Translations under genes and position numbers: made by a program
From: Streptococcus suis
GTDB taxonomy: Bacteria; Bacillota; Bacilli; Lactobacillales; Streptococcaceae
NCBI GenBank assembly: GCA_022354845.1
Contig: CP031970.1
Span: 1,426,001-1,490,000, forward strand
Direction of reading: 5' to 3'
DNA length: 64,000 nucleotides
Shown here: positions 11,924 to 64,000 of the stretch, piece after piece
How positions within the stretch are numbered: the stretch's first letter is position 1
Layout: every line of letters begins with the position of its first letter
The notes under the pieces: model-generated
Seen by the model: only the letters and a program-made list of their open reading frames with translations
The model's database searches: none
What the model was told of the DNA's origin: nothing

Positions 11924-11940
11924 TACCTTTCTAAGCGCAC

Positions 11941-12175: not shown

Positions 12176-12206
12176 TTGTCTTACTCCTTTCAGCTTTCTA
12201 TCCACT

Positions 12207-12234: not shown

Positions 12235-12292
12235 GGGGTTTTGTTGGTAAAATATTCCCTATTTACCCCCTATTTAATAGAATTGCCTTTAG

Positions 12293-12526
12293 AAAATAGT
12301 TGGGCGAAATGTCCACATAGACTCACTAAGACATACCCACGCATCATACTTGATTACTCAAGGAGTCGAATTGATTTCCATTTCCCGATTATTAGGACAT
12401 GAAAATTTAAACATAACACTCAAAGTCTATGCCCATCAACTGGAATCATTAAAAGAAAAGAGTAATGACAAGTTCAAAAAGATATTCGAAAGATTTGGGG
12501 CAGGCATAACAAAAACCCCTGTGTAT
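12293..12526 (+). pseudogene. C-terminal remnant of a phage-type tyrosine integrase
   Basis: The frame HIDSLRHTHASYLI...SRLLGHENLNITLKVYAH contains the H-x-x-R, the second His and the catalytic Tyr region of tyrosine recombinases. The frame is closed by an in-frame stop just upstream (12290-12292) and lacks the N-terminal ~250 residues. A TTG at 12350 could start only a fragment. The remnant ends next to tRNA-Thr, a classical integration target, so it is likely a scar of a lost integrative element or prophage. Confidence 0.85.
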
Positions 12527-12538
12527 CAAGGGTTTTTT
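12511..12538. terminator. Intrinsic terminator beside tRNA-Thr
   Basis: AAAAACCCCT...AAGGGTTTTTT is a bidirectional hairpin with T runs on both strands. On the reverse strand it follows tRNA-Thr. Confidence 0.75.
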
Positions 12539-12549
12539 GGATTATTTTA

Positions 12550-12622
12550 TGCTAGTTGCCGGGATTGAACCGGCGACCTCATCCTTACCATGGATGCGCT
12601 CTACCGACTGAGCTAAACCAGC
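12550..12622 (-). tRNA. tRNA-Thr (anticodon GGT)
   Basis: The reverse strand folds as a tRNA. The acceptor GCTGGTT pairs with AACTAGC, with discriminator A at 12550. The D arm is AGCTCAGTCGGTAGAGC. The anticodon stem CATCC/GGATG closes the loop ATGGTAA, giving anticodon GGT. The T arm is GCCGGTTCAATCCCGGC. No CCA is encoded. Confidence 0.95.
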
Positions 12623-12773
12623 GTACTTGACTAGTATATCATACCTCCAAAATATGTCAATGGATTTTTATAAAAAATGATTAAGAGAGAGCACGATGAA
12701 GAAAGCGATGAAGTAAGCACGTGAACAAAATATATTCCAGTATCATTAAAGCTAATATATATCTAAAAATTAT

Positions 12774-12802
12774 CTGACATTTTTAAGTATTTGTGTTATA
12801 TT
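12774..12802 (+). promoter_or_regulatory. Promoter of the feo operon
   Basis: CTGACA (12774-12779) and TATATT (12797-12802) are spaced by 17 bases, 30 bases before the feoA start. No convincing Fur, MntR or PerR box was recognised. Confidence 0.6.
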
Positions 12803-12831
12803 ATTGTTATAAAAATCACAAAGGATGCATA

Positions 12832-13293
12832 ATGAACATGCAAACACTGCAAATTGGACAAATTTATCTTGTAAAAGACATTCAATTACAAGAAGATGTT
12901 CGCAAACATTTGAACCATCTTGGGTTAAAGATAGGGCAAGAAATTCGAATCATTTCAAAAACAAAGGACAATGCAATTATCCAGGTCAAAGCCAGTCGTT
13001 TAGCTTTGGATCAATCTGTTCTCAATAGCTTGGTTTTAGAAGAAAAATCAGAACAAGGGCGATCCTTGGCCCTATCAGATCTTCCAATTGGTAGCAGCGC
13101 TAAAGTTATTGAAATCTGTGCGACAGGCGCTCTACGCCGTCGTCTCATGGATATGGGTATAACAAAACATACACAACTTCTTCTAAAAAATGTTGCTCCT
13201 TTAGGCGATCCATTAGAAATAACACTTCGTGGCTACCATTTAACTCTCCGGAAATCGGAAGCACAAATGATTCTCGTTCAAGTTGCAAGCTAG
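12832..13293 (+). CDS. feoA: FeoA-like protein with two FeoA domains
   Basis: This 153-aa cytoplasmic protein is made of two successive SH3-like FeoA domains (about 5-75, LNHLGLKIGQEIRII; and 80-150, RRRLMDMGITKHTQLLL, DPLEITLRGYHLTLRKSEA). The second half is the better match to classical FeoA. FeoA assists the ferrous-iron transporter FeoB. The ATG at 12832 follows AAAGGA; an open frame further upstream is not used. It lies eight bases before feoB. The tandem domain form is known in streptococci. Confidence 0.88.
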   Translation: MNMQTLQIGQIYLVKDIQLQEDVRKHLNHLGLKIGQEIRIISKTKDNAIIQVKASRLALDQSVLNSLVLEEKSEQGRSLALSDLPIGSSAKVIEICATGALRRRLMDMGITKHTQLLLKNVAPLGDPLEITLRGYHLTLRKSEAQMILVQVAS

Positions 13294-13301
13294 GTGAATA
13301 A

Positions 13302-15452
13302 ATGAAAAAACAGATAGCCTTAGTGGGTAATCCGAACAGCGGGAAGACCTCCCTTTTCAACCTACTGACAGGAACCAACCAACGAGTTGGAAATTGGCCA
13401 GGTGTAACGGTCGAAAGAAAATCAGGAAACATAAAAAAACGACCACACTTGGATCTGCAAGATCTTCCCGGAATCTATTCCCTCTCACCCTACACTTCCG
13501 AAGAGATGGTTGCTAGAGACTACCTCCTAACTGCTCAACCAGCAGCCATTTTAAATGTTGTAGATGCAACGAATCTGGAACGCAATCTATATCTAACTCT
13601 CCAATTACTCGAGATGGGTATCCCAACTGTTATTGCACTGAATATGACCGATACTTTGAAACAACAGGGACGGAGTATTAAAGTAGATCAGTTATCTCAC
13701 CAGCTAGGTTGCCCCATTCAATCAATTAGTGCATTAAAAAAGATGGGAATCCCTCAACTGCTTAGCGAAGTTGAAAGAATGAGCACACAATCTAGCACAC
13801 ATTATTTTCCGCAATATGAGAAACAATTTGAAGCAGCTATTGCTCAAGTTATTGAATTGTTACCTCAAACAATCCCTACAAGACAACAACGCTTTTATGC
13901 TATCAAGTCTTTAGAACAAGATCCAGACATTTTACATCAACTCAATTTCGGAGAAACTGAAAAAGCAGATTTATCTGAAATTATCATGATTTTGGAGAAA
14001 ATCTATTCGGATGATATCGAAGCCATAATTGTCAATCAGCGATACCAATTAATTGAAACCATTTCGAGCTCCGTCCAAGAAGAAATTGGAAACGGCCTTA
14101 ATATTTCTGATAAAGTGGACCAAATTGTAACCAACCGCTTTCTCGCACTTCCTATTTTTGCACTCGTTATGTGGCTAACCTACTTTCTTGCTATCCAAAC
14201 CGTAGGAACTATTGGGACTGACTGGGTCAACGATGTATTGTTTGGCCAATTTGTTCCAGTTATTATTCAAAATCTCCTTGATACCTTTGGAATTGCTGGC
14301 TGGTTACAATCATTAGTACTTGATGGAATTGTAGCTGGTTGTGGAGCTATACTCGGCTTTGTGCCACAGATTTTTGTACTCTTCTTCTGTCTAGGAATCT
14401 TAGAAGATATTGGATACATGAGTCGAATTGCCTTTGTCATGGACCGAATTTTTAGACGGTTTGGCCTATCAGGTAAATCCTTTATCCCGATGCTGATAGC
14501 CACAGGATGTGGTGTTCCTGGAGTAATGGCTAGTCGAACAATTGAGAATGAACAAGACAGAAAAATCACCATTATGACAGCTACTTTTATGCCTTGTTCA
14601 GCCAAACTTCCGATTATTTCACTCGTTGCAGGTGCTTTTTTCCCTGGCAACCCTTGGATTGCACCCAGCGCATATTTCGTTGGTATGGGAGCCATTATTC
14701 TTTCTGGTTTGGCATTGAAAAAAACAAAGCAACTCGGTGGCTTTGCGAGTCCATTTATCATGGAATTGCCTTCCTACCATCTTCCGCAAATTCAAACCGT
14801 TCTTCGTTATTCTTCCAATAAGGCAATAAGCTTTATCAAACGTGCGGGGACCATTATCTTCGTAACCAATATCATCATTTGGTTTGCTAGTTCATACAGC
14901 TGGGCTTTGGCACCAGTCGAGACAAATCAAAGCATCCTGGCTTCAATCGGCCATGGTTTTGCCTTTTTCTTCCAACCACTTGGTTTTGGGAACTGGAAAG
15001 CTACAATCGCAGCGATTACTGGTCTCCTAGCTAAAGAGACAGTCATTGCTAGTTTTGGTATTCTCTACAAACTGGGAGAAACTTCCGAGAGCAATCGTGA
15101 ATTGTGGGTATTGCTCCAGCAAGATTATTCCGCTTTATCCGCCTACTCATTCCTCATTTTTAACTTGCTCTGTGCACCATGCTTTGCTGCTATTGGAGCC
15201 ATACATCGTGAGATGGGAAATGCAAAATGGACCTGGATTGCTGTAGGTTTCCAAACAGGACTAGCCTATGCTGTCAGCCTCATCATTTATCAATTCGGAG
15301 CTGTTTTTCTCTATCATCATCAACCAACTATTTGGACCGGTATTGCACTGATTTTACTATCTGCAATGGTGTATAGTATCGTTCGAAAACCTGCTTCCGC
15401 CTTACCCATCGTCACTCTAAAAAACATTCAAAAGGAGCAAATGAATGGCTAA
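13302..15452 (+). CDS. feoB: Ferrous iron transporter FeoB
   Basis: This is a 716-aa polytopic transporter. The N-terminal G-protein domain has G1 GNPNSGKTS, G3 DLPGIYSL and G4 NMTD. A helical GDI domain follows, then two Gate repeats in the C-terminal membrane part (IATGCGVPGVMASRT, and LLAKETVIASFGILY). It takes up Fe(II) across the membrane. It is translationally close to feoA and overlaps the following small Cys-rich gene. Confidence 0.95.
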   Translation: MKKQIALVGNPNSGKTSLFNLLTGTNQRVGNWPGVTVERKSGNIKKRPHLDLQDLPGIYSLSPYTSEEMVARDYLLTAQPAAILNVVDATNLERNLYLTLQLLEMGIPTVIALNMTDTLKQQGRSIKVDQLSHQLGCPIQSISALKKMGIPQLLSEVERMSTQSSTHYFPQYEKQFEAAIAQVIELLPQTIPTRQQRFYAIKSLEQDPDILHQLNFGETEKADLSEIIMILEKIYSDDIEAIIVNQRYQLIETISSSVQEEIGNGLNISDKVDQIVTNRFLALPIFALVMWLTYFLAIQTVGTIGTDWVNDVLFGQFVPVIIQNLLDTFGIAGWLQSLVLDGIVAGCGAILGFVPQIFVLFFCLGILEDIGYMSRIAFVMDRIFRRFGLSGKSFIPMLIATGCGVPGVMASRTIENEQDRKITIMTATFMPCSAKLPIISLVAGAFFPGNPWIAPSAYFVGMGAIILSGLALKKTKQLGGFASPFIMELPSYHLPQIQTVLRYSSNKAISFIKRAGTIIFVTNIIIWFASSYSWALAPVETNQSILASIGHGFAFFFQPLGFGNWKATIAAITGLLAKETVIASFGILYKLGETSESNRELWVLLQQDYSALSAYSFLIFNLLCAPCFAAIGAIHREMGNAKWTWIAVGFQTGLAYAVSLIIYQFGAVFLYHHQPTIWTGIALILLSAMVYSIVRKPASALPIVTLKNIQKEQMNG

Positions 15453-15606
15453 CTTCATCCTGATATCACTCATTGTTGTATTGTTCGTCCTAGCTATCCG
15501 TAGCTTGGTCAAAAGTAAAGGTGCCTGCAATGATTGTTCTTGTGACTGTGCTATCAAACAAGAAATTTCTCATCAACATGTTCCAAAACATTCTAAAATC
15601 TCATAA
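15445..15606 (+). CDS. FeoB-associated Cys-rich small membrane protein
   Basis: This 53-aa protein starts inside the last codons of feoB (ATGAATGGCTAA overlap). It has one N-terminal membrane helix (FILISLIVVLFVLAI) followed by CNDCSCDC, the layout of FeoB-associated Cys-rich proteins. These replace FeoC in many Firmicutes and may hand iron or electrons to FeoB (role not proven). Confidence 0.88.
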   Translation: MANFILISLIVVLFVLAIRSLVKSKGACNDCSCDCAIKQEISHQHVPKHSKIS

Positions 15607-15650
15607 ACTTCACCTTTAAAAAAATTCCATTTTTTAACTGTCAGACAGAT

Positions 15651-51911: not shown

Positions 51912-52844
51912 TTAGTTTTCACTCCTATTGTGTTCAATTAAATTGGAAAGACGCTCCTCAAATAATTTTGTCGCATCAAATCCCATTTGTTTTGCTCGGT
52001 AATTCATTGCAGCTGCTTCAATCACTACAGAAATATTTCGTCCTGTTTTTACAGGTATACGAATTTGAGGAACCGTTATCCCAGCAATCTCAATCGTATC
52101 ACCAGAATTTCCCAGTCGGTCAAACACCTTGCCAGTTTCAAAATTTTCAAGGTAGACTGCTAATTGCACTTCTGATGAATCTTTAACGGCACTTGCACCA
52201 TGTAGACTCATCACATCAATAATCCCAACTCCTCTAATTTCCAATAAATGACGAAGTATTTCTGCAGGCTCACCCCAAAGGGTAACATCATCTTTGGCAA
52301 AGACATCAACTCGGTCATCAGCCACCAATCGGTGTCCTCGTTTAACCAACTCTAGGCCCGTCTCACTTTTACCAATACCAGAATCACCTTGGATTAAAAC
52401 CCCCATGCCATAGATATCCATCAGGACACCATGAACACTGGTACGTTGTGCCAATCGACTATCTAAATAAGAGGAGAGTTCCCCTGACAGTCGACTAGTC
52501 GCAGTTTTACTTCTACAAATTGCAATCTGTTTTTCCTTAGCAGCCTTATACATCTCTTCAGGAATTTCCAGACCACGGGCAACAATAACAACAGGCGTTT
52601 CTGGTTGGAACATTTGAGAAAGGACCTGATAACGGTTATGACCAGTCATTGCTGTCAAATAGGACCATTCCTTCATACCAATCAGTTGAATGCGTTCTGG
52701 GGCGTAATAATCAAAGTAGCCAGTCATTTCCAATCCTGGACGGGTAATGTCTGCCGTTGTAATTGGTTTTTTCAGGAGCTCTTCAGTACTATAAGCACAT
52801 TCAATCCGCAGATTATCGACCAGATCTTTTACATAAACGGTCAT
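51912..52844 (-). CDS. hprK: HPr kinase/phosphorylase
   Basis: This 310-aa bifunctional enzyme has Walker [10 protein letters not shown] and the HPrK signature [18 protein letters not shown]. It phosphorylates and dephosphorylates HPr at Ser46, controlling CcpA carbon catabolite repression and PTS activity. The ATG at 52844 (MTVYVKDLV) is preferred over one four codons upstream. Confidence 0.96.
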
Positions 52845-53046
52845 TTGTTCCCTCACTTTCAGTTTTATTATATTATACCATAAGCTAGCGCTTGCAGGGG
52901 AAAGAAGTGGACTATATTAATAAAAAGAATAAGTTTACTTACTTATTCAATTAAAGTCAATAAAAAACACTCATGCTATCAGATACACAATTCTAACAAT
53001 TCTGTTATACTTTTATAGTAGAATTCTTTTTAAAAAGGAGATGAAT

Positions 53047-53988
53047 ATGGAACCCTTGTTTCTCACACCTGTAATGCACGAAAAAATTTGGGGTGGTCAA
53101 CGCCTGAAAACCAACTACCACTACGATATTCCTAGTGAAAAGACTGGTGAATGTTGGGCTATATCTGCCCACCCAAACGGCGTAACAATAGTCTCAAATG
53201 GTCAATATAAAGGAAGAGGACTGGATGACCTCTATCAGAATGAAAAACATTTATTTGGCAATCCCACAGATAATGTCTTTCCATTATTAACCAAAATCCT
53301 TGATGCAGACGATTGGCTTAGCGTCCAAGTCCATCCCGATGATAGCTATGGCTTGGCTCACGAAGGTGAATTGGGCAAGACAGAATGTTGGTACATTTTA
53401 GAAGCTGAGGACGGAGCTGAAATCATTTATGGCCACAAAGCCCAATCCAAAGAAGAACTCCGCCAGCAAATCGAAGCTGGAGATTGGGACAAGCTGTTGA
53501 CCCATGTACCCGTCAAAAAGGGTGATTTCTTCTTTGTACCAAGCGGAACCATGCACGCCATCGGTAAAGGTATCATGATACTAGAAACCCAACAATCTAG
53601 CGATACAACCTACCGTGTCTATGACTTTGATCGCCGTGATGATGCAGGCAACCTCCGTGAACTACACATTGAAAAATCGATTGATGTGCTGACAATTGGT
53701 CCAGTTGCCAATTCAACACCTGCCAAGCTTAAAATCGATCATCTTGATTCGACCGTCTTAGTAGCAAATCCGTTTTTTACAGTCTATAAATGGGATATTC
53801 ATCAAGAAATCAAAATGGGACAGACCGTTCCTTACCTGCTTGTCAGTGTCATCGAAGGGGAAGGTGCCATCCAAGTCGGTGAAACCAGCTATCCACTTCA
53901 AAAAGGTACCCACTTTATCTTACCAGCCGATGTATCAGACTGGACCTTTACAGGTCAAATGGAATTAATAGCTAGTCACGCAAACTAA
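53047..53988 (+). CDS. manA: Mannose-6-phosphate isomerase, class I
   Basis: This 313-aa cupin-type zinc enzyme has VQVHPDDSYG, KTECWYILEAEDGAE, KKGDFFFVPSGTMHAIGKG and YRVYDFDRRD. It interconverts mannose-6-P and fructose-6-P. The ATG at 53047 lies seven bases after AAAGGAG; another ATG at 53041 touches the Shine-Dalgarno. Confidence 0.95.
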   Translation: MEPLFLTPVMHEKIWGGQRLKTNYHYDIPSEKTGECWAISAHPNGVTIVSNGQYKGRGLDDLYQNEKHLFGNPTDNVFPLLTKILDADDWLSVQVHPDDSYGLAHEGELGKTECWYILEAEDGAEIIYGHKAQSKEELRQQIEAGDWDKLLTHVPVKKGDFFFVPSGTMHAIGKGIMILETQQSSDTTYRVYDFDRRDDAGNLRELHIEKSIDVLTIGPVANSTPAKLKIDHLDSTVLVANPFFTVYKWDIHQEIKMGQTVPYLLVSVIEGEGAIQVGETSYPLQKGTHFILPADVSDWTFTGQMELIASHAN

Positions 53989-53994
53989 GCATAC

Positions 53995-54028
53995 AAAAAA
54001 CTTGAGCTTTTAAACTCAAGTTTTTTTG
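53995..54028. terminator. Bidirectional terminator between manA and the LiaY-like gene
   Basis: AAAAAACTTGAGCTTTTAAACTCAAGTTTTTTT, T runs on both strands; serves converging genes. Confidence 0.85.
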
Positions 54029-54030
54029 CA

Positions 54031-54303
54031 TTATTCAAACCAAGATTTATGTATCTTCTCAGCATCTTTTATCTTACGCGGGCCAGTTCCATATTTCTCG
54101 GCATCCTTATCTTCCTTATATGGTAAGAAGTAAACTGCTGCTGCGTAAAGGGCGATTAACAAGATAAAAGATTTTCCAAATAGAAGACCTGCTATAAAGA
54201 GGGCTCGAACAAGCCATGCTTCCCATCCTAATTTATGAGCAATGCCTGCAAGAACGCCAGACACAACTTTTCCCTTTCTTACTCTATACAAATCAATTGA
54301 CAT
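54031..54303 (-). CDS. PspC domain membrane protein (LiaY-like)
   Basis: This 90-aa PspC-type protein has VRKGKVVSGVLAGIAHKLGW and a hydrophobic segment (ALFIAGLLFGKSFILLIALY). Its start overlaps the stop of the LiaX-like gene by 11 bases. In enterococci and streptococci such PspC proteins belong to the LiaFSR envelope-stress regulon. Confidence 0.85.
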   Translation of the reverse strand: MSIDLYRVRKGKVVSGVLAGIAHKLGWEAWLVRALFIAGLLFGKSFILLIALYAAAVYFLPYKEDKDAEKYGTGPRKIKDAEKIHKSWFE

Positions 54304-55054
54304 CTTTTATTCCTTTCACATAAAAAGCACCTTGACCAGTCTGTGCTTTTATAAAGAGTAAATCATTTCCTGATTTTTCAAATTGATAAGGACTATTTTT
54401 CTTCTTTCGGTTGACTACAACCTGTCCTGATTGAGACTCAATCTGACCTCGAATTCCCTGCCCCTTCCCTGTTTGTAAGGTGAAGGGCGCGTGTGCCAAT
54501 TGCACATACAAATGTTGTGGGTAGCCACCGCAGGTTGTCAAGCGAATATCCTGTTGTTTTTTATCTCTTGAACTGCGGATAGAAATATCTTCAAACGGCA
54601 AGTAGTCTAACCGGGCATCTGCTTGACCAAGTTCTACAGCTAGTACTGACATCCATTCCTGGGGTAAGCTAATGGTCAAGTGACAGGCCAAACTACTGTT
54701 GAAATATAGTCCTTTCTTTTCAACATAAAGACGAGGGAGCTTGTCTTCTGGCGCATCTTGATTATAAACAATTTCTACGGTGATCTGTTCATTCTTAGAC
54801 TTAGTCAGAGTCAGCCGCCCCTCGGATAATTTTAGAAAGAGTGATTCAATTCCATCAAATGAATAGGCCTGTTTCAGCTTTGAGGAAGCAAAGACCTTGA
54901 AACTTGGTAAGGTAAAATTCAATTTTGCTTTTTCTTCCACAAAAAGAAAGTCTGGTTCTTGATTCATTTCCTTAAAACAGGCGCGAGCCTCTTCCTTGGT
55001 CAAGACACCTTTTTCATATAACTCAATTAAGCGTTCTTCTCTCTTTTGCGTCAT
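54293..55054 (-). CDS. DUF4097/LiaX-like envelope stress protein
   Basis: This 253-aa protein has an N-terminal SHOCT-like helix (MTQKREERLIELYEKGVLTK), then a beta-rich domain typical of DUF4097 (FDGIESLFLKLSEGRLTL, ACHLTISLPQEWMSVLAVEL, ...GQADARLDYLPFEDISI). It lacks a signal peptide. It resembles LiaX of Enterococcus, a modulator of the LiaFSR daptomycin and antimicrobial-peptide response, and is coupled to a PspC gene as in liaXYZ. Homology to LiaX is at domain level only. Confidence 0.75.
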   Translation of the reverse strand: MTQKREERLIELYEKGVLTKEEARACFKEMNQEPDFLFVEEKAKLNFTLPSFKVFASSKLKQAYSFDGIESLFLKLSEGRLTLTKSKNEQITVEIVYNQDAPEDKLPRLYVEKKGLYFNSSLACHLTISLPQEWMSVLAVELGQADARLDYLPFEDISIRSSRDKKQQDIRLTTCGGYPQHLYVQLAHAPFTLQTGKGQGIRGQIESQSGQVVVNRKKKNSPYQFEKSGNDLLFIKAQTGQGAFYVKGIKDVN

Positions 55055-55095
55055 AGACTCACCTCAATTCCATACTAGTATACCATATTTCCCAA

Positions 55096-55121
55096 CAAAA
55101 AAATCAGCCCAAGGACTGATT
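55096..55121 (-). terminator. Intrinsic terminator at the end of the RM locus
   Basis: AATCAGTCCTTGGGCTGATT followed by TTTTT on the reverse strand; it separates the LiaX-like gene's promoter region from the restriction locus. Confidence 0.75.
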
Positions 55122-55240
55122 CTAGAAAACCAAGCTTTGCCAAGGCAATTGATAGATTTTCTGAAAATGGATGAAAATTCTGCTTTGAAAACCAAAAATT
55201 TAATTCTATTACTCAACTCTGAGCGTATAAAAATCATCAC

Positions 55241-55256
55241 GCTTGGGAACTGCGGA
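55241..55256 (+). repeat. hsdS 5' recombination repeat, inverted copy
   Basis: GCTTGGGAACTGCGGA occurs here on the + strand and at 57141-57156 on the - strand. Its 13-base core GCTTGGGAACTGC also occurs at 60963-60975 and 61539-61551 (both -) within the expressed hsdS, at the start of each TRD. Confidence 0.85.
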
Positions 55257-55657
55257 AGTTCAAAGACATTCTAAAAACACACTCGTTCCGTTCGTACTTA
55301 GCTGGTGTTTCAGAGAATGGTGAGTACGAAGTTATTCAACAAGGTGATAAGCCAATTGTTGGATATTTTGATGGTGAACCTTTTACTGATTACAAAGATG
55401 TAACTCTGTTTGGGGACCATACAGTTTCATTATATAAGCCCAAAAGCCCCTTCTTTGTTGCTACTGATGGCGTAAAAATTTTAAGTGCAGATAATTTTGA
55501 AGGTGATTATCTGTATACAACTTTAGAACGTTATAAACCTGAACCACAAGGATATAAGCGTCATTTTACAATTTTGAAAAATCAAGATGTGTGTTTTACG
55601 GAAAATATGGAAGAACAACAAAAAATTGGTGTCTTCTTCAAACAGTTAGATGCCACT

Positions 55658-55681
55658 ATCACCCTTCATCAGCGTAAGTCG
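55658..55681 (+). repeat. hsdS 3' recombination repeat, inverted copy
   Basis: A 24-base sequence encoding ITLHQRKS is identical here (+) and at 56632-56655 (-), flanking the recombinase. A 20-base core (ATCACCCTTCATCAGCGTAA) recurs at 60518-60537 and 61076-61095 (-) in the expressed hsdS. Confidence 0.9.
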
Positions 55682-55690
55682 ATTTGATGT

Positions 55691-56623
55691 CTAGCTTAAG
55701 CCAGATAGGTAACGCATGACTAAATCTGTATCTTGATTTTCAAGTTCCGAGATGACATGCATATAGACTTTTTGGGTGGTTGTCATGGAGGAGTGTCCCA
55801 ATCGTCTGGACACACTAGCTATTGAAACACCTGCATACATCAAAAGAGAGGCATGGGTATGTCTAAGCCCGTGGATAGAAATGACTGGTACACCCACATT
55901 TTTGCAGTGGCGCTCCAACCACTTATTTGGAGTGGAGTTGCAGACTGAACCATTGACAAAAATAGGCTTATCCTGGGGTAAGTCTTTGATGAGTTGCTGA
56001 AATTGCATACTCAACTGCCAATCAATCTGCACTTTCCGCATGGAAGATTTATTTTTGGTAGGTAAAAAACCACCATTTCCCTTGTAATTCCATGTCTTTG
56101 TCACGGAAACATTCTGCTGAACAAAATTAAAATCAGCTGGTGTCAGACCTAAAGCCTCTGAAAATCGCAGCCCTGTCTTCGCAATGAGCAAAATCAGCCA
56201 GTCCCAGTTGATCCGACACTCCAAGTTCAAATCAGAAAGGACATTGTGGAGTTCAAACTGATTTAGGTATTTCATTTTTTTAATTCTTGGTGCCTTGCCC
56301 TTAAAAACCACTTTACGGGTCGGATCTCGGTCAATATAACCCTCATCAACAGCATCCAAGACCGCACCCTTGAGCTGGTGATGAAAGTCAATAACTGTCT
56401 GACGTTCATGGGTCAAAGCATAGTCATTCAAAATTTGCTGATAGGTCGTCCTATCTAACTGATAAAGAGACAAATCAGGAACAATATTTTTCAAATGAAC
56501 ATAATTATTTCTATACTTTTCCAAAGTAATCGGTCGAACCGCCCCCTCTTTAAATAGCCTGGTCCATTGTTTAAAATATTCGTGAAGTAAGGTTTCTCGT
56601 GTAATTTTATTCATCATATCCAA
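55691..56623 (-). CDS. Tyrosine recombinase of the phase-variable hsdS locus (CreX/PsrA-like)
   Basis: This 310-aa integrase-family protein has an N-terminal SAM-like core-binding domain (~20-110) and a catalytic domain with Arg in KTGLRFSEALGL, HGLRHTHASLL (His-x-x-Arg), GHSS and the Tyr of QKVYMHV. It lies between two oppositely oriented half-hsdS cassettes with a 24-bp inverted repeat at each side. That is the position of CreX in pneumococcal SpnIII and related phase-variable type I systems. It probably catalyses TRD inversion (inference from context). Confidence 0.9.
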   Translation of the reverse strand: MDMMNKITRETLLHEYFKQWTRLFKEGAVRPITLEKYRNNYVHLKNIVPDLSLYQLDRTTYQQILNDYALTHERQTVIDFHHQLKGAVLDAVDEGYIDRDPTRKVVFKGKAPRIKKMKYLNQFELHNVLSDLNLECRINWDWLILLIAKTGLRFSEALGLTPADFNFVQQNVSVTKTWNYKGNGGFLPTKNKSSMRKVQIDWQLSMQFQQLIKDLPQDKPIFVNGSVCNSTPNKWLERHCKNVGVPVISIHGLRHTHASLLMYAGVSIASVSRRLGHSSMTTTQKVYMHVISELENQDTDLVMRYLSGLS

Positions 56624-56628
56624 TCCTT

Positions 56629-57185
56629 CTACGACTTACGCTGATGAAGGGTGATGTGTTGGTCAAGGGTGGAGAAGAAGGTGCCGATGGCAGATTGTTC
56701 TTTTTGACTAGGGACCAAAACATTTTGCTCATCTAAATCATGTTTGTTTAAGTTACCAATAGCTCCGTTTCCACCAGCAACATATAGATTGATAAATTTG
56801 GTATACCATGCAGAACTCATAAGTGAGTTGATGAACTCTGGATTTCTACAAGAAGCTAACAACATGAATCCACCATGTATTGCAGAATTTTCTGGTAAAT
56901 CTTTAATTATAGTGTGTTTCCCAACTAGTCTGCTAGAACCATTCGCAGCCGTTATCAGAATGTCACCTTCTTTGACCAATGGACTTTTTACTACCCCTTT
57001 ATCTACAAAAACATCATCTTCTCCAAATGTAAATGTATCTTCATCAATATTAGAAGAGCGTAACACTCTAATACCTTCTAAACGGATATTGACAGGGGAG
57101 TAAGTCAATCCTCTACGAATTTCCGCTAACTCTGAAAATCTCCGCAGTTCCCAAGCAGGAGTATTTTTTACCCTATTCCACAGTG
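56629..57185 (-). pseudogene. Silent half-hsdS cassette (forward with hsd operon)
   Basis: A frame without a usable start codon reads KNTPAWELRRFSELAEIRRG, one TRD (AEIRRGLTYSPVNIRLEGI...; ENSAIHGGFMLLASCR), then IGTFFSTLDQHITLHQRK and a stop. An in-frame TGA lies upstream near 57207. It has the same ends as the inverted cassette but a different TRD. An ATG at 57108 could express only part of it. It lies between hsdR and the recombinase. Confidence 0.88.
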
Positions 57186-57253
57186 GCTGAGGATGACAGT
57201 TTATTCATTCGATAGCTACTAGAAAATGTTTTCTGTTGGTTTCTGAAAACGAT

Positions 57254-57279
57254 GAAAAAGACCAAGAAAAATCTTGGCC
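57254..57279 (-). terminator. Intrinsic terminator after hsdR
   Basis: GGCCAAGATTTTTCTTGGTC followed by TTTTTC on the reverse strand, just past the hsdR stop; it should insulate the silent cassettes from the operon. Confidence 0.7.
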
Positions 57280-57288
57280 TTAGTGGTC

Positions 57289-60200
57289 TTATTTGTATTT
57301 CTGCTTGGTTTCTGCTATCCACTGTGGGAGAACCTTGTTCAAATTCATATTTAACTTCAGCTTATTACCTGCGAACTCATTGGTCGCTTGATCTGGATCC
57401 AAGGTCGTAGCAATTTCATTACGGTAAGGAACCTCACCTGGCTTACTTGTGTTGTACTCCTGTAGTGACTTTCTAAGCAAGTCGCTACCAATTCCCCACT
57501 GGCCTGCAAATTCCTTGATGACCGCAAACTGTCTATTCTCCTGCCATTCTTTAAAAGCGACGTCAAAATCGACAGAGGCAGACAATTTACCTGTGACCAA
57601 TTCTTCGTTAATAAAGGTTTTCAAGGCTTCAGCCAGTTCATTCTCACCAAGGTCACTCAATTCTTGGATTTGCTCCAAAATCAAGACCAAATTATTGTCA
57701 TTGATTACTTGGAAACCACCTTCATTGGTTGTTTTGTTTCCTATCAAAGCAAATAAACTTTGGGCATCAATGATTTGACTACCCTGCAATTTGGTACGCC
57801 CCTTCAAGTCTTTTGGTATCCAATCATCGCCACCAGTTTCTCTAGGAAACAGGTTTCTATAAGCACCGATGTACTGAAGCCAGCTATGCTCATCCAAACC
57901 AAAGGCTTCATCATCCCAAACAAATTCATAGTATTGCTTGACACGATCCAGTTGCTTGAAGCTTTCTTTAAAAGCAGTTTTATACGCTACCTTCTTCTCC
58001 TCATCATACTGGATGTCAATCCACTTGGTCGGGTTGGGCAATTCTGACCGTAGAGCCTCTACTTTTGTCCGAAGTAAGTCTACCGCAACCCCATATTTTT
58101 CAACAAGAACACGGCTATTGCTACCACCGCTACCGTATAGCAACAAGGCTTCCTTAACAATTTCCTCTGTTATGCGAGGGTATTGGAAATTGATAATAGT
58201 ACCAAATTCCTTGCTGGAACCAAAAACCCGGTTGGTTCGAGAATATGCCTGTATTAAGCCCTGTAATTCCAGCTTCCTATCAACGTAGAGAGTATTCAAG
58301 CGTTTCGCATCATAACCCGTCAAAAGCTGATCTGCAACGATGAGAATATCGATATTCTTAGGATTACGACCACTTCCACCACGCTTGGCACGGTCAGTCA
58401 CATCTTCAAAATAAGCATCCTCGCCCTTTTTCTTATCACCAGCAATAAAACGGATACCTGTAAAACCTTCATAATCCGCGAACATCTCTTCAATGACTTC
58501 CCTAGCGACATTGTCAGAATCATTTTCATTTCCAAAACTAAAGGTCATGGCAATATTGGGCTTGGCATCTCCATCCCTAAACTGCTCTGCTATTTGCTTT
58601 TTAAACTCGTGATAGTAGGCGATGACCCGCTCCTTAAAAGCAACCGTCAGCATGGCATTGAACTCGCCACCCTGTGATTGTTCCTGCCAGCCCGCCAAAA
58701 TCTCCTCTACCACTCTAGGAATATGGGTTTGATCGTGATAGACCAAAAGTCCCTCTTTGGCCGCATGCTTTTCTACATCCAATTCTGACAGCCGCATGAC
58801 TTGACGTTCAATCTCTTTGATAGCTTTTTCTGGATGTTTTTCTGTTAGAAGTTCAATCAAATCTTCACGCAAGTCTTCATAGCTCCTAAATTCACCAGTA
58901 TTGATGTAATCCACATGGAAGCCAAGGACATTCCCATCCGCAATCGCCTCGTCAATCGTATATTGGTGCAAAAGAGGCCCAAACAATTTTTCAGTCGTGT
59001 TAATCAACTCACTGCGTTCGTTAATTTTCCCCTTGACCTTGTTTTCATCAAAGAGGGGAGTACCTGTAAAACCAAAGAATAGACCATTTTTATAGAAATA
59101 ATCCTTAATCATCCCCATCATACCGCCCATGGTTGTCCTATGGGCCTCGTCAATGATGAAAATCATTTTCTTATTTGTCAAACTTCGATCATCAGCTTCC
59201 ATCAAGTCCTTGACCAAATTGCTCAATTTGAAGGTAGTGGTCACAACAATACCGCTCTTTGAAGCTGTTAGTTGTTTACGGAGCTGATAAGTACTTTTGG
59301 TATCGTCAACATTGACAGATTCATAGGTCGCGTAAGCCTTAAAGGCCTTGGAAGTCTGCTCATCCAAATCCCGCCTATCTAGCAAGAAGACAACCTTGTC
59401 AAACTCCGTTCGTGTCGAAAGAAATTGAGCTGTTTTAAAGCTGGTAATGGTCTTTCCAGAACCTGTCGTATGCCAAACAAAGCCTCCATGGGGTATTTTT
59501 TCCGCATTATCCCATCCAAAAGCTGCCTTTTCAACTGCCTGCAGGGCATAGACCTGATAGGGACGCATAAGCATGTGGCGTCTATTCTCCTCATTGTCAA
59601 GATCTTCATCGATAATCAGGTAGTCGCCCACCATCTGATGAGCCATTGGAACCATCAGAAAATGCTCAATGACTTCTCTGAAATCTGTCAAGACCCTTTG
59701 TCCCAAATGCTTACCACTTTCTTGGTCCTTCTTGGTGACAGACCAATGAAAAACAAAGGCAGGATTAAAATCATTGATAGATTTTGGCGTTGCAAAATAC
59801 CGGGTTTCGATGTCTGTTGTGACCACCATCATTTGAGAAAAGGCCATGAAGTTATTGGTATATTCCCCATCGGCATAGTAGCGTTTAAACTGACCAAAGG
59901 CCTCGTCCAAGGACTTGTCACTCCGCTTTTGCTCAATGTTAATCAAGGGCAGACCGTTAATCAATAAGACTAGGTCAAAGCGGTTGCCATTGTCCGACCA
60001 AACTTCGCGAGCCACTTGATAGCTGGAATCTCCCCCACTAACCTGAGCCTTTTTCAAAATGGTTAAGGTAATTTGCTTCTTGGTCACATGTGGGTGCTGG
60101 TCACGGTATATACCATCGATTTTACCCGTAGAACCTTCCATGGATAGGATTTTTGCGGCCTCGTAACTATTGGAAATCTGCTTGACCTTTGTCATGACTT

Positions 60201-60414
60201 GATCGAACTCGCTATCGGTAAGAGCAACACCTTCCAAGACATCCGCATTCATACGATTTAGCTCTGACCGCCAATTATTTATCAAATCCTGAACTGTAAC
60301 TTTCTGTAAGTTTCCATTTAGGTGTTCAGGAGTTTGCCATTTAAACTTGGATAATTCCCGAACGAATTTATCTTGAAATTCACGTTCTGAAGCGTTTTTT
60401 GAGATAGTTTCCAT
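57289..60414 (-). CDS. hsdR: Type I restriction endonuclease subunit R
   Basis: This 1041-aa protein has an N-terminal PD-ExK nuclease (RFDLVLLINGLPLINIEQK), then an SF2 motor with Walker A HTTGSGKT, DEAH box IIDEAHR, GFTGTPL (motif III-like) and a later VADQLLTGYDAKRLNTLYVD (motif VI region). It cuts unmodified DNA after translocation as part of R2M2S. The ATG follows AGAAAGGA. It is placed after hsdS, between it and the silent cassettes, unlike pneumococcal SpnIII, where hsdR is upstream of the invertible region. Confidence 0.95.
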   Translation of the reverse strand: METISKNASEREFQDKFVRELSKFKWQTPEHLNGNLQKVTVQDLINNWRSELNRMNADVLEGVALTDSEFDQVMTKVKQISNSYEAAKILSMEGSTGKIDGIYRDQHPHVTKKQITLTILKKAQVSGGDSSYQVAREVWSDNGNRFDLVLLINGLPLINIEQKRSDKSLDEAFGQFKRYYADGEYTNNFMAFSQMMVVTTDIETRYFATPKSINDFNPAFVFHWSVTKKDQESGKHLGQRVLTDFREVIEHFLMVPMAHQMVGDYLIIDEDLDNEENRRHMLMRPYQVYALQAVEKAAFGWDNAEKIPHGGFVWHTTGSGKTITSFKTAQFLSTRTEFDKVVFLLDRRDLDEQTSKAFKAYATYESVNVDDTKSTYQLRKQLTASKSGIVVTTTFKLSNLVKDLMEADDRSLTNKKMIFIIDEAHRTTMGGMMGMIKDYFYKNGLFFGFTGTPLFDENKVKGKINERSELINTTEKLFGPLLHQYTIDEAIADGNVLGFHVDYINTGEFRSYEDLREDLIELLTEKHPEKAIKEIERQVMRLSELDVEKHAAKEGLLVYHDQTHIPRVVEEILAGWQEQSQGGEFNAMLTVAFKERVIAYYHEFKKQIAEQFRDGDAKPNIAMTFSFGNENDSDNVAREVIEEMFADYEGFTGIRFIAGDKKKGEDAYFEDVTDRAKRGGSGRNPKNIDILIVADQLLTGYDAKRLNTLYVDRKLELQGLIQAYSRTNRVFGSSKEFGTIINFQYPRITEEIVKEALLLYGSGGSNSRVLVEKYGVAVDLLRTKVEALRSELPNPTKWIDIQYDEEKKVAYKTAFKESFKQLDRVKQYYEFVWDDEAFGLDEHSWLQYIGAYRNLFPRETGGDDWIPKDLKGRTKLQGSQIIDAQSLFALIGNKTTNEGGFQVINDNNLVLILEQIQELSDLGENELAEALKTFINEELVTGKLSASVDFDVAFKEWQENRQFAVIKEFAGQWGIGSDLLRKSLQEYNTSKPGEVPYRNEIATTLDPDQATNEFAGNKLKLNMNLNKVLPQWIAETKQKYK

Positions 60415-60462
60415 TCATTTCCTTTCTATCATCATGTAAGTAACTGCTACTTACGCTGAAAA

Positions 60463-61611
60463 TCATACAAACAGCTCATTTAAAAGTGCTTTTTTCAAGT
60501 TTTTGAGTTTTTCTAGCTTACGCTGATGAAGGGTGATTTGTTGGTCGAGGGTGGAGAGTATCTTAACAATTTTTTCTTGTTCTTCTAATTGTGGTATAGT
60601 TATCTCCATATCTGAGATCATTTCTAAACGAACTGAATCGACAGAGTTCTTTGCAGTCATAGCCATCACTCTATCAAAAAATTTTTTTGAAAAGTAATAA
60701 TAAAAGTATTTAGCGTTAACATGGGTGAATGAAAACATCCTATAAACTCGTTGATGTAAGTCATATTTACCATGAACATAATGAAATACCTTACCTGTCC
60801 CAACTCCATCTCCAACTGTGAGAACTGCTTCCTCATCAAATAAATACTTAGTCGATTTTTCAATTATTGGAGATCTCACATAGAATGGGAATTTACCTTG
60901 CTCCTCTCTATCTTGAGTATTACTTTTACCAGTTGAAATTCTACAAATTTCTCCTACATTCTGCAGTTCCCAAGCGTCAGTAAATCCAGGAAAACGGCGT
61001 TTTGGCACACGCTCTCCTTCAGCGGGGAACATTTCACTCAAATACGCTTGTTTTACACTCTTTAATTTGTCAAGCTTACGCTGATGAAGGGTGATGTGTT
61101 GGTCTAGGGTGGAGAAGAAAGTGCCGATGGCTTCTTGTTCGGAGAGGGAGGGGAACTTTGCAATACTTTCAGCAACTAAATTCCAATCTGATCTTGGCAT
61201 CTTCGTACCAGAAGTATCATTTGCAACTAATTGAAAAGAATTACTCTGTATATAGGTATATAAAAAACAACTATGCCAAAGATCCGACTTTAAATTCCAA
61301 AAATCACCTAGTGCTATTCCTTTAAACTCTGCATACCACCAATTTTTTAAATATGGACGTAATTTTCCGAATAGTACATCCCCCACATTAAACTCTAAAC
61401 CTTTCCTATAATCTAATTTCTGAGAAATATCCTTATTTAAAGTACCTAATCCTGAGTTAATATCTTCAAACTCCAATCTAGGTAAATCTTTACTAGATGA
61501 TATTAGATTTGAACGATAAACCACTTCCCCAAACTTTCGCAGTTCCCAAGCATCTGCATTTTCAAACTCTTTAAAGCGGCGTTTGGGGATATTTTTATCT
61601 TTGTTCGGCAT
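60463..61611 (-). CDS. hsdS: Type I restriction specificity subunit S (expressed copy)
   Basis: This 382-aa protein has two TRDs, ~25-155 (LRKFGEVVYRSNLISSSKD) and ~220-350 (LQNVGEICRISTGKSNTQD). Each is followed by the conserved spacer helix (TLDQHITLHQRKLDKLKSV; TLDQQITLHQRKLEKLKNL). Full length, with start ATG and GGGGGA ribosome-binding site. It dictates the DNA target of both methylation and restriction. The 13-base and 20-base repeats at the TRD edges are shared with the two silent cassettes. Confidence 0.95.
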   Translation of the reverse strand: MPNKDKNIPKRRFKEFENADAWELRKFGEVVYRSNLISSSKDLPRLEFEDINSGLGTLNKDISQKLDYRKGLEFNVGDVLFGKLRPYLKNWWYAEFKGIALGDFWNLKSDLWHSCFLYTYIQSNSFQLVANDTSGTKMPRSDWNLVAESIAKFPSLSEQEAIGTFFSTLDQHITLHQRKLDKLKSVKQAYLSEMFPAEGERVPKRRFPGFTDAWELQNVGEICRISTGKSNTQDREEQGKFPFYVRSPIIEKSTKYLFDEEAVLTVGDGVGTGKVFHYVHGKYDLHQRVYRMFSFTHVNAKYFYYYFSKKFFDRVMAMTAKNSVDSVRLEMISDMEITIPQLEEQEKIVKILSTLDQQITLHQRKLEKLKNLKKALLNELFV

Positions 61612-61744
61612 TGCTATATTCCCCCAACTTCTTTCGATTTTTCTTTCGTTTTCGGAAAATCGCAGAAAATGACTGTTAATGATTTTCTTTCACAGGATTT
61701 TTGGGCTATAAAATAGCTCTTGTTGAAAGTTTGTTTCATCATCT

Positions 61745-64000
61745 TCATGATAATACCACCAGCTCTTTCATCAGATTTTCAAGTTCTCTTTCAAGCAGGG
61801 CTATTTCCGCATCCATGTCGTCCAAGGTTTCAGCATAGCGATTATGGAGTTCTTCGATAATGGCAATCTCAGCCTTTAATGGCAATTCAACCAGTTCCAA
61901 TGCCTTGTCCGTCACCTGACCAAACCATTTCTTATAGAGTAGCTGATCAACTTCCTCATCTGTCAAGACTTGGATACGGTTTGACACCAGTTCCTTGAGT
62001 TCCTGTTCCTTGGTCTTGATTTCCTTGGCTACTGTCGACTTCTCCTTGGCTAGATCATCCACTTGTTTCAAGAAACCAAATTCTGTAGAGCCTTTTACTG
62101 CTTCTTTCAGAGCAGCCTTGACCAATTTACCTTCAAAACTATCCTGTGCTTCCCCATCGTCATTCTTTTTCAAGACATCAAAGAAGGCATTATACTCTTC
62201 GCTATCTTCCACCTTGGCATTTTCCACCAATTCACTGACTTCACTGTCAATTTCCGAAATCCGGTTTTTCAGGCTGTCAATATGGGTAAGTTCTTCACCG
62301 TAGCACTCACTAGCAATCAAACTATTAGGAATAATCACACCATTCCAGCCATCTTGAACCTTCTCCTTGTTCTTCCCTTTAGCCACCATATTCGGCTCAC
62401 GGGTACGCCCAGCCTCATAAAATCCTAATTGCTCAATCAACTCTGCGTCATGGGTCAGGGTCTTAGTCCAAATTTCTGCAATGATTTGATAACCTTCGTA
62501 GATATCAATTTGGTCAAATTGTGACAAGCATTTCTTAATGTCTGCCAACATTTCTTCTTTCAATAATCTTGTATTGGTTTCCGTTTGTAAACGGTGCAAT
62601 TTTGTCCAATATTCTTCGATAAAGGCCGTAATAGTTGACTGGACTTGTTCGTATTCTGCCCGAACAACTGGGCTGGATAAGATTGCTCTTGAAAACTCTT
62701 CAATGGACTGATGTAAAGTTAAGTAGCCTGGACGATTTTCACTAAAGGCATTGTCCAAAACCTCTTTGACTGTCTGATTGAGTACCATCAGGGAGTCTAT
62801 ATTTTTCTTTGGAATACCACCATAAAGATGCGCATCCACATCATGGGGAATTTCTTTATCCAGAGCAGTCACATAGCGTGGGATGTTCATATTATAGTCA
62901 TTTTGGATCAATTCCTGACGACTTGCCAAGTGACTGTAGCCATCTTCTTCCGTTCTGTTCGTATAGACATCCACAATCTTTGCGATGTCCTTTTCTTGCA
63001 AGGCATTTTGTTTACCTGCCTTGATAAAGTTTCGTGAGGCATCGATAAAGAGTACAGGCTCATTCAAATCCCGATTTTTCTTGAGGATGATGATACAAAC
63101 TGGGATACCAGTGTTGGTAAAGAGGTTGCTTGGCAAACCAATAACGGCATCAATCTGATTTTTTTCCAAAAGACGCTTGCGGATTTCACCCTCAGCTGCT
63201 CCGCGGAAGAGAACACCGTGTGGCAAGACAATGGCCATGGTTCCATGGGTTCCCAGGTGATAGAGACCGTGTAAAAGGAAGGCAAAATCGCCTTTTGAGT
63301 CAGGTGGAAGAACACCAGCGATTTCGAAACGGGGGTCGCTGGGTTTCAAGCCTGAACGATTCCAATTTTTTACAGAATATGGTGGGTTCATGACCACCGC
63401 ATCAAATTGGACACCTTCATTTGGACGTTCTGGATCTTCTGGCCAGTCTTGCGATAGGGTATCACCATTTTTAATACTCATCTTTTCCGGACGGACACCG
63501 TGGAGCAAGAGGTTCATGCGGGTCAAGTTATAGGTAGCTGTATTCTTCTCCTGACCGTAGTAGTTTAAACTTTTTTGCTTGTCTTCTGACAAGTGTTTTT
63601 TTACGGTCAGAAGGAGGGAACCTGACCCAACCGTTGGGTCATAGATAGAAGAAATTGATGAGTTGGTTGCGACAATCTGAGCCATGACTTCGCTGACTTG
63701 GTGAGGCGTGTAGAACTCACCCGCTTTCTTACCAGATTCCATGGCAAATTGACCAATCAGGTATTCATAAGCATCTCCCAAGACATCTCCATTTTGTAGA
63801 GCAACCATATCCAAATCCTCGAACAAACGGATGAGGGCTTGAATATTTTTACTGCGTTCATTGAGATTGCTTCCCAATGCTGTATCTGTCAAGTCAAGGG
63901 TTGAGCTGGCAAATAGGCCTTGAAAATCATCAGAACCATTAGCAACAGCGATACTCCGCTCAAACTGGCTCAAGCTATCCGTTACCTTTTGGACTTCAAA
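61745..64000 (-). CDS. hsdM: Type I restriction-modification methyltransferase subunit M, 5' end outside window
   Basis: This is an N6-adenine methyltransferase: SAM motif I DPTVGSGSLL, catalytic motif IV NPPYS, plus FYTPHQV. The frame stays open to the right edge (FEVQKVTDSLSQFER), so the N-terminal helical domain lies outside; at least 751 residues are present. Beyond the methylase core (~residue 420 here) there is a long charged helical tail (LKNRISEIDSEVSELVENAK, KEIKTKEQELKELV) of ~300 residues, longer than in classical ~520-aa HsdM. Confidence 0.93.
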   Translation of the reverse strand, partial: FEVQKVTDSLSQFERSIAVANGSDDFQGLFASSTLDLTDTALGSNLNERSKNIQALIRLFEDLDMVALQNGDVLGDAYEYLIGQFAMESGKKAGEFYTPHQVSEVMAQIVATNSSISSIYDPTVGSGSLLLTVKKHLSEDKQKSLNYYGQEKNTATYNLTRMNLLLHGVRPEKMSIKNGDTLSQDWPEDPERPNEGVQFDAVVMNPPYSVKNWNRSGLKPSDPRFEIAGVLPPDSKGDFAFLLHGLYHLGTHGTMAIVLPHGVLFRGAAEGEIRKRLLEKNQIDAVIGLPSNLFTNTGIPVCIIILKKNRDLNEPVLFIDASRNFIKAGKQNALQEKDIAKIVDVYTNRTEEDGYSHLASRQELIQNDYNMNIPRYVTALDKEIPHDVDAHLYGGIPKKNIDSLMVLNQTVKEVLDNAFSENRPGYLTLHQSIEEFSRAILSSPVVRAEYEQVQSTITAFIEEYWTKLHRLQTETNTRLLKEEMLADIKKCLSQFDQIDIYEGYQIIAEIWTKTLTHDAELIEQLGFYEAGRTREPNMVAKGKNKEKVQDGWNGVIIPNSLIASECYGEELTHIDSLKNRISEIDSEVSELVENAKVEDSEEYNAFFDVLKKNDDGEAQDSFEGKLVKAALKEAVKGSTEFGFLKQVDDLAKEKSTVAKEIKTKEQELKELVSNRIQVLTDEEVDQLLYKKWFGQVTDKALELVELPLKAEIAIIEELHNRYAETLDDMDAEIALLERELENLMKELVVLS

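What the first reader, a model, noticed from the sequence alone, without database searches (positions are those of the whole stretch)
55223..61611. Phase-variable type I RM locus: two silent TRD cassettes around a recombinase
One expressed hsdS with two TRDs, two start-less half-hsdS cassettes in opposite orientations, a tyrosine recombinase between them, and matching 13-16 bp and 20-24 bp repeats at all four TRD borders. Reshuffling can create several HsdS variants and so several methylomes. This is the SpnIII-type logic, but with its own gene order.
Basis: partly seen in the sequence, partly recalled or inferred. Interest (0 to 1): 0.75.

Follow-up and report, generated by a model that had tools for sequence, protein, structure and literature searches.

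The report
Shuffling cassettes of a restriction enzyme
A pig-associated streptococcus keeps four interchangeable DNA-recognition cassettes, two in use and two in store beside a DNA-cutting-and-joining enzyme; related bacteria carry such cassettes in every one of the four places, so the bacterium can probably change which DNA sequence its restriction enzyme marks, a new variant of a known kind of switch.

Summary
On the minus strand: hsdM, hsdS (two TRDs), hsdR, silent half-hsdS S2, tyrosine recombinase; inverted silent half S1 follows. All four TRDs share a 13-bp 5' and a 21-bp 3' repeat; exact copies of the 21-mer occur four times in the 2.03-Mb genome, all here.

SpnIII-type single inversion does not suffice: hsdR lies between hsdS and both stores, so the 10 of 12 single crossovers that touch hsdS shorten it or flip or delete hsdR. 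A clean exchange needs both borders.

Exchange has happened. One public HsdS equals this one except that S1 replaces TRD1 exactly. The S2 type of TRD occurs in all four slots among S. suis proteins. In one relative both expressed TRDs have identical silent copies ending at the repeats. N and C slots are interchangeable. Products of single crossovers also occur: HsdS with silent-cassette tails, and an hsdR-less strain.

Repeat codons are fixed beyond codon usage. The recombinase as driver, and switching within one culture, remain inferred. New variant of a known kind.

The parts
61745..64000 (-). hsdM, modification subunit (start lies beyond the window)
   Evidence: N6_Mtase PF02384 368 bits; TIGR00497 344.6 bits
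60463..61611 (-). hsdS at the expressed position, 382 aa, two TRDs (N slot and C slot), native C-terminus LEKLKNLKKALLNELFV
   Evidence: Methylase_S 96.3 bits; two TRDs by the half-hsdS profile
61075..61551 (-). N-slot TRD cassette T1 with its two repeats
60517..60975 (-). C-slot TRD cassette T2 with its two repeats
57289..60414 (-). hsdR, restriction subunit, between hsdS and the silent cassettes
   Evidence: HSDR_N, SWI2_SNF2, EcoR124_C; TIGR00348 329.4 bits over cut-off 284.55
56629..57204 (-). silent half-hsdS S2, same orientation as hsdS, ends HQRKS*
   Evidence: stop-to-stop frame; Methylase_S 33 bits
55691..56623 (-). tyrosine recombinase, 310 aa, flanked on both sides by inverted copies of the 3' repeat
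   Evidence: Phage_integrase 64.8 bits; solved relatives include XerD and phage Int
55223..55687 (+). silent half-hsdS S1, opposite orientation, ends HQRKSI*
   Evidence: stop-to-stop frame; Methylase_S 27.1 bits
55241..55253 (+). 5' repeat GCTTGGGAACTGC of S1 (16 bp shared with S2)
57144..57156 (-). 5' repeat of S2
60963..60975 (-). 5' repeat of the C slot
61539..61551 (-). 5' repeat of the N slot
55658..55681 (+). 3' repeat of S1 (24 bp shared with S2, 21 bp with all)
   Evidence: (I4-I6)
56632..56655 (-). 3' repeat of S2
60517..60537 (-). 3' repeat of the C slot
61075..61095 (-). 3' repeat of the N slot

Best explanation
[quoted passage not shown] The unit that moves is a cassette from the 5' repeat (GCTTGGGAAC..) to the 3' repeat (..CATCAGCGTAAG); start codon, linker and C-terminal helix stay with the slot. 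Because every slot carries the same two repeats, any TRD can enter any slot, N or C. The recombinase most likely acts at these repeats. One crossover between hsdS and a store truncates hsdS and flips or deletes hsdR; a second crossover at the other border can restore the operon with a new TRD. Shown by comparison: exact cassette replacement, all four slots used, exact copying in relatives, protein forms expected from single crossovers. Inferred: that the recombinase does it, that it happens within a culture, and that methylation changes. With four cassettes, 12 ordered HsdS proteins are possible. An N/C swap should read the same bipartite target on the other strand, since the linker aligns with C-terminus plus N-terminus, so about six different motifs are expected.
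For: Repeats at 4 of 4 cassettes, the 21-mer nowhere else in the genome. P0028 (267-kb contig, source not shown) equals the window HsdS over 27 N-terminal and 210 C-terminal residues with S1's 145 residues exactly in the N slot. The S2-type TRD (85% or more alike) is in N (P0027, P0047, P0243), C (P0054), S1 (P0244) and S2 (window); another TRD is in N, S1 and S2 (P0121, P0123, P0122). P0027/P0054 and P0046/P0072 hold the same two TRDs in swapped order with 0 mismatches in TRDs and backbone; P0035/P0040 0 in TRDs, one in the linker. G178: expressed TRD1 = silent cassette 519/519 bp, TRD2 = the other silent one 507/507; G138: 506/507; identity starts 3-4 bp before TGGGAA and stops within 1 bp of the AAG of the 3' repeat. 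Same order M-S-R-S2-recombinase-S1 in G058, G138 and G178. Repeat codons against the background of the same frames: Leu CTT 64/64 against 18%, 3' Arg CGT 83% against 22%, Lys AAG 78% (3') and 97% (5') against 24%. 11 of 50 HsdS with this system's start end in silent-cassette tails, as single crossovers predict. Recombinase reversed in YS161.
Against: No reads or methylome: switching within one culture is not shown. No recombinase-negative comparison. Exact duplicates (G178, G138, G082) cannot arise by inversions alone, which conserve the set; they need copying between chromosomes, gene conversion or DNA uptake. Homologous recombination and natural transformation could explain all the strain comparisons. 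The codon control outside recombinase loci was too small (4 LHQRK and 2 WE[QL]R[KR] sites in 2 loci, same favoured spelling), so the DNA constraint is not tied to the recombinase; and the count takes only sites whose protein still reads LHQRK or WE[QL]R[KR]. Of the 11 tailed HsdS most come from metagenome contigs, many short. hsdR is colinear with hsdM in 23 of 23 scored loci, so the predicted flipped intermediate was not seen as a locus.
Confidence: 0.72

Rival explanations
1. Recombination between strains: TRDs are exchanged mainly by natural transformation and RecA at the short conserved borders. The silent cassettes are an archive; the recombinase is a passenger or an old relic. No programmed switch within a clone.
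For: Exact duplicates in G178 and G138 need non-reciprocal transfer. The listed proteins with this start show many different TRDs. TRDs of the T1 and S2 types also sit in another S. suis HsdS backbone (P0065, P0096, P0118; P0248). Domain movement is described without naming a recombinase (PMC3077401, passages read).
Against: Of 7 loci with a recombinase of 87% or more (window, L009, L010, L011, L060, L061, L062), 4 show the full order, 1 (L009) is cut by contig ends but agrees, and the 2 short forms (L010, L011) still keep recombinase and a second cassette. None of the 27 recombinase matches in 25 of 284 genus genomes has an internal stop. The recombinase is reversed between its flanking repeats in YS161. 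Borders of 13-21 bp are short for RecA (recalled). P0028 has a backbone identical to the window's.
Confidence: 0.2
2. SpnIII-type invertase switch: single inversions between hsdS and S1 make the variants, and what matters is the HsdS with the silent tail.
For: Proteins with HQRKSI* tails exist: 4 with two TRDs and 2 with one, of 50 with this system's start.
Against: Each such inversion turns hsdR round and cuts off the C-terminal helix. 31 of 50 HsdS keep two TRDs and the native C-terminus. hsdR is colinear with hsdM in 23 of 23 scored loci.
Confidence: 0.06
3. Excision-reintegration as at pneumococcal tvr (SpnIV): a circle carrying recombinase and cassettes is excised and re-enters at another repeat.
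For: S2 and hsdS are direct repeats; the hsdR-less YS161 looks like an excision product.
Against: S1 is inverted; only the recombinase lies between the two silent cassettes, no tvrAT-like pair; a circle excised between hsdS and S2 would carry hsdR.
Confidence: 0.07

Closest known systems
SsuCC20p of S. suis (PMC10790761: passages and sections 6 and 11 read; PMC5198162: parts 1 and 2 of 4 read)
   Same: Type I locus with four TRDs, a tyrosine recombinase called xerD, short repeats, TRDs 'switching place', recombinase orientation reversed in some strains, truncated hsdS or inverted xerD seen in reads.
   Different: Its 14-bp repeats TAAATCATCATTTA are absent from window 52001-64000. It sits by rpsI/rplM on a mobile element with two hypothetical proteins. 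The 2016 paper found no domain movement between TRD1 and TRD2; here there is. Sequence identity of the recombinases was not compared.
SpnIII / cod locus of S. pneumoniae (PMC6620402, PMC7096588: passages read)
   Same: Expressed hsdS with silent hsdS and a tyrosine recombinase. The CreX core ATTATGGGAA shares TGGGAA with the 5' repeat here.
   Different: Three different inverted repeats; single inversions suffice; that N and C TRDs keep their place there is recalled.
SpnIV / tvr locus (PMC6265443: passages read)
   Same: Half-S units (TES) and shuffling driven by a tyrosine recombinase, TvrR.
   Different: Direct repeats, circular intermediate, tvrAT regulator genes, hsdR outside the excised part.
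Domain movement (DOMO) in H. pylori and S. pyogenes HsdS (PMC3077401: passages read)
   Same: TRDs move between N and C positions at x and y repeats; one-TRD and three-TRD forms occur.
   Different: No linked recombinase or silent-cassette module is described in the passages read.
SsuPORF1273P and SsuPORF1588P of S. suis (PMC6265453 passages, PMC5198162 parts 1-2, PMC10790761 section 11 read)
   Same: Same species; two hsdS genes (1273P), or a linked integrase and single-TRD hsdS (1588P).
   Different: [quoted passage not shown] 1588P lies between serS and an N-acetyltransferase gene. The window locus lies between PspC/manA/hprK-like and sprT/tex-like genes (named by eye).

Membership tests
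Type I restriction-modification system | hsdR, hsdM and hsdS with two TRDs in one locus | tested here: met
Tyrosine recombinase | Phage_integrase domain with catalytic R, HxxR, H, Y (motif recalled) | tested here: met
   PF00589 64.8 bits; TGLR, HGLRH, LGHS and VYMH read by eye in the translation
Recombinase-linked phase-variable type I RM (general kind) | silent hsdS parts, repeats shared with the expressed gene, linked recombinase | tested here: met
Recombinase-linked phase-variable type I RM (general kind) | several alleles within one clone | not testable with these tools
   no reads; P0028 comes from an assembly whose strain is not shown
SpnIII/cod type | a single inversion gives a new intact hsdS | tested here: not met
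   0 of 12 single events (an enumeration, not an experiment)
SpnIII/cod type | separate repeat sets for N and C TRDs (recalled) | tested here: not met
   same 13-bp and 21-bp repeats at all four TRDs
SsuCC20p | IR TAAATCATCATTTA / TAAATGATGATTTA | tested here: not met
   no match in window 52001-64000
SsuCC20p | recombinase homology to its XerD | not tested
   its sequence was not fetched
tvr / SpnIV | all repeats direct, with tvrAT beside the recombinase | tested here: not met
   S1 inverted, only the recombinase between the silent cassettes
tvr / SpnIV | circular intermediate | not testable with these tools
   needs DNA from a culture
DOMO | same TRD at N and C positions of HsdS at one locus, flanked by repeats | tested here: met
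   (locus judged from the shared start, linker and end; these proteins come without genomic context)

The most novel reading that the evidence does not exclude
hsdR is built into the switching segment so that a stepwise change of specificity passes through a restriction-off state: the first crossover joins a new TRD to hsdM and at the same time turns hsdR away from the operon and truncates HsdS; only after the second crossover is the full enzyme back. That would keep the nuclease off while the new methylation is laid down, and so solve the self-restriction problem of specificity switching by gene order alone. For: all 8 single events joining hsdS to a store flip or delete hsdR; HsdS with the predicted tails occur (11 of 50); of 23 recombinase loci that could be scored, hsdR lies between hsdS and the cassette beside the recombinase in 16, hsdM in 5, neither in 2 (in 5 of the 16, L074-L078, that cassette is a weak match of about 30 bits and in most of them another cassette lies elsewhere; 23 further loci could not be scored). 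Against: hsdR is colinear with hsdM in 23 of 23, so no flipped state was caught; a coordinated double exchange or copying would skip it; the tailed HsdS may be inactive; hsdR could have a promoter of its own.
Probability: 0.13. Interest if true: 0.72.

Novelty: new variant of a known kind. Interest (0 to 1): 0.46.

Why it matters
Phase-variable type I systems change the methylome and gene expression of streptococci. This one has a simple, readable format, one cassette type and four equal slots, that lets borders, order and copying be read from genomes. It separates two questions usually mixed: exchange with a store (new motif) and N/C swap (expected to be neutral for the motif). Its gene order makes a clear test of how a cell survives a change of restriction specificity, since hsdR should be disconnected during any stepwise switch.

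Tried and rejected
SpnIII single inversion: rejected by enumeration. tvr-like excision: kept as a minor rival. Identity with SsuCC20p: its repeat is absent. Identity with SsuPORF1588P and 1273P: flanks differ from those in PMC5198162; Ssu13ORF242P of that paper was not tested. Codon control in HsdS without a nearby recombinase: only 4 LHQRK and 2 WE[QL]R[KR] sites in 2 loci, same favoured spelling, so no contrast; replaced by the codon background within the same frames, where sites are not independent because cassettes travel. Promoter/terminator scan of 54900-57500: 7 promoter-like sites against 6.5 expected, 1 terminator-like against 2.0, nothing usable. In the literature searches (open-licence PMC only) I saw no description of this locus in the listings or in the passages I opened; subscription papers and supplements were not searched. 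PMC9233858 (S. parasuis, passages read) mentions hsdS below 50% alike beside shared hsdR and hsdM, which may or may not be this locus. PMC7394358 (passages read) surveys type I loci with duplicated hsdS; the S. suis locus named in what I read is SSU1271-SSU1274.

Counts: one search dropped 31 named loci as duplicate or shorter copies; one search used a named list of one copy per locus; one search dropped L012 (same place as L062) and could not score 23 loci. TRD groups use 75% identity with single linkage and join some distant TRDs; one search uses 85%, and there the window hsdS is counted twice (P0001 and WIN_S). The three protein searches listed 120 each of 7982, 336 and 696 hits, so frequencies are not population frequencies. 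An earlier hand count for the novel case (11 of 22) was replaced by the scripted count.

Full report
What is there. The window is 1426001-1490000 of a 2,026,249-bp genome in one contig. The best recombinase matches among named genomes are S. suis 10581 (98%) and YS161 (96%), and many HsdS relatives are named S. suis, so the organism is S. suis or a close relative. On the minus strand follow hsdM (61745 to beyond the window), hsdS (60463-61611), hsdR (57289-60414), a half-hsdS S2 (56629-57204) and a 310-aa tyrosine recombinase (55691-56623); a second half-hsdS S1 (55223-55687) lies opposite, tail to tail with S2 around the recombinase. Each of the four TRDs begins at GCTTGGGAACTGC and ends at ATCACCCTTCATCAGCGTAAG. 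The 13-mer is found four times in the window against 0.00 expected. The 21-mer is found exactly four times in the genome, all here, with 0 for the backwards control.

What moves. In G178 the expressed TRD1 is identical over 519 bp to the silent cassette downstream of hsdR, and TRD2 over 507 bp to the inverted silent cassette; in G138 (S. pacificus, by the same contig) TRD2 matches the S2 cassette at 506 of 507, the one difference being the last base of the 3' repeat. Identity starts 3-4 bp before TGGGAA and stops within 1 bp of the AAG of the 3' repeat, while the flanks differ. So the moving unit is repeat-TRD-repeat, and at least some events copy rather than swap. G082 has four nearly identical copies of one TRD, three in one 567-aa frame. 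In the window and in G058 the four TRDs all differ.

Where it goes. I classed TRDs in 360 listed proteins and in the window, L009, L010 and L060 by the amino acids before them: N slot (MPNK..NIPKRRFK), C slot (PKRRFPGF), S2 slot (..KNTPA), S1 slot (..LNSERIKI or AYKNHHA): 49 N, 55 C, 4 S2, 4 S1, 179 not assigned. At 85% identity, 12 TRD groups occur in two or more slots. The group of the window's S2 occurs in all four; the TRD at the expressed position of YS161 occurs in N, S1 and S2 slots of three proteins. P0028 is the window's HsdS with T1 replaced by S1 and nothing else changed (27 and 210 flanking residues identical). P0027/P0054 and P0046/P0072 hold the same two TRDs in opposite order without any mismatch; P0035/P0040 with one linker difference. 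N and C slots are thus equivalent. The linker between the TRDs aligns with the protein's C-terminus followed by its N-terminus, which fits the pseudo-twofold symmetry of HsdS (recalled); an N/C swap should therefore keep the bipartite target, apart perhaps from spacing.

How. I enumerated all crossovers between like sites. Of 12 single events, 2 only turn the recombinase (with or without S1/S2), 2 remove one TRD of hsdS, and the 8 that join hsdS to a store leave HsdS with a HQRKS* or HQRKSI* end and hsdR deleted (4) or inverted (4). Two inversions, one at each border, restore the operon with S1 in N or C; inversions alone reach all 12 ordered pairs within five steps. The predicted protein forms exist: of 50 listed proteins with this system's start, 31 have two TRDs and the native end, 11 end in the silent tails (4 HQRKS*, 4 HQRKSI*, 1 HQRKSI read on, 2 one-TRD HQRKSI*), 1 has three TRDs, 7 are others. 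YS161, with the same left-flank genes as the window, has hsdM, one TRD ending HQRKSI*, the recombinase reversed, and one other cassette. Its genome shows no hsdR closer than 38% at E up to 1e-60: a deleted form, in a draft assembly. Peptoniphilus KCTC 25270 (L011) has the same short form with an interrupted hsdM. The recombinase is reversed in 2 of the 6 S1-slot instances I could read from tails (L010, P0123 against window, L060, P0242, P0244, the slot of L060 and P0242 placed by eye).

Is the recombinase the driver? For: linkage; cassettes tail to tail around it in 13 of 47 rows (12 distinct loci, two of them with full hsdS on both sides; many other rows are cut by contig ends or lack a cassette within 400 bp); no internal stop in its 27 matches in 25 of 284 genus genomes; and repeat spelling fixed in ways neither the protein nor codon usage demands: Leu CTT 64 of 64 against 18% of other Leu codons, CAG 83% (3') and 88% (5') against 31%, CGT 83% at the 3' site against 22% (at the 5' site CGT 53%, CGG 30%), AAG 78% (3') and 97% (5') against 24%, in 29 loci that include Streptococcus, Jeotgalicoccus and Lachnospiraceae. 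The pneumococcal CreX core ATTATGGGAA (PMC6620402, passage read) shares TGGGAA with the 5' repeat. Against: sites are not independent, the outside control was too small and of the same spelling, and copying needs more than inversion. SsuCC20p gives the nearest experimental support: its shuffling needs its xerD and looks like TRDs switching place (PMC10790761, passages and sections 6 and 11 read).

Gene order. Of 23 recombinase loci that could be scored, hsdR lies between the expressed hsdS and the cassette next to the recombinase in 16 (5 of them doubtful), hsdM in 5 and neither in 2; hsdR is colinear with hsdM in all 23. This is the ground of the novel case, and the colinearity speaks against a stable flipped state.

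What it is called. It is a recombinase-linked, shuffling type I RM locus. It is not SpnIII type (a single inversion does not work; repeats not separate), not tvr type as far as tested, and lacks SsuCC20p's repeat. It unites domain movement with a silent-cassette module and puts hsdR inside the exchange interval. I therefore call it a new variant of a known kind.

Noticed in passing
L011 (Peptoniphilus sp. KCTC 25270), 9465-15625: A close copy of the system (recombinase 88%, hsdM pieces 78% and 81%) in a distant Firmicute, next to rpsI/rplM-like genes, with hsdM split by two genes that look like acetyltransferases (named by eye). SsuCC20p is also placed at rpsI/rplM in PMC5198162.
   Followed up: partly
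P0065, P0096, P0118, P0248; G058:C1:650672-651190: TRDs of the same types also sit in other S. suis HsdS backbones, and a fifth cassette with both repeats lies in another type I locus of G058: cassettes seem to pass between unrelated loci.
   Followed up: partly
P0007 (577 aa); L065 10495-12195 (567 aa): HsdS-like frames with three TRDs; in L065 (silent side) the three are nearly identical.
   Followed up: no
L063, L067, L070, L072, L079: In other streptococci the cassette-recombinase module lies beside hsdM, so hsdM rather than hsdR lies in the exchange interval.
   Followed up: partly
G000:C1:847823-851281 and 1888062-1891598: Two further type I loci in the genome with full hsdS (frames of 393 and 423 aa); neither holds an exact copy of the 21-bp repeat.
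   Followed up: partly
G000:C1:659574-660344: A distant recombinase relative (28%) with an internal stop.
   Followed up: no
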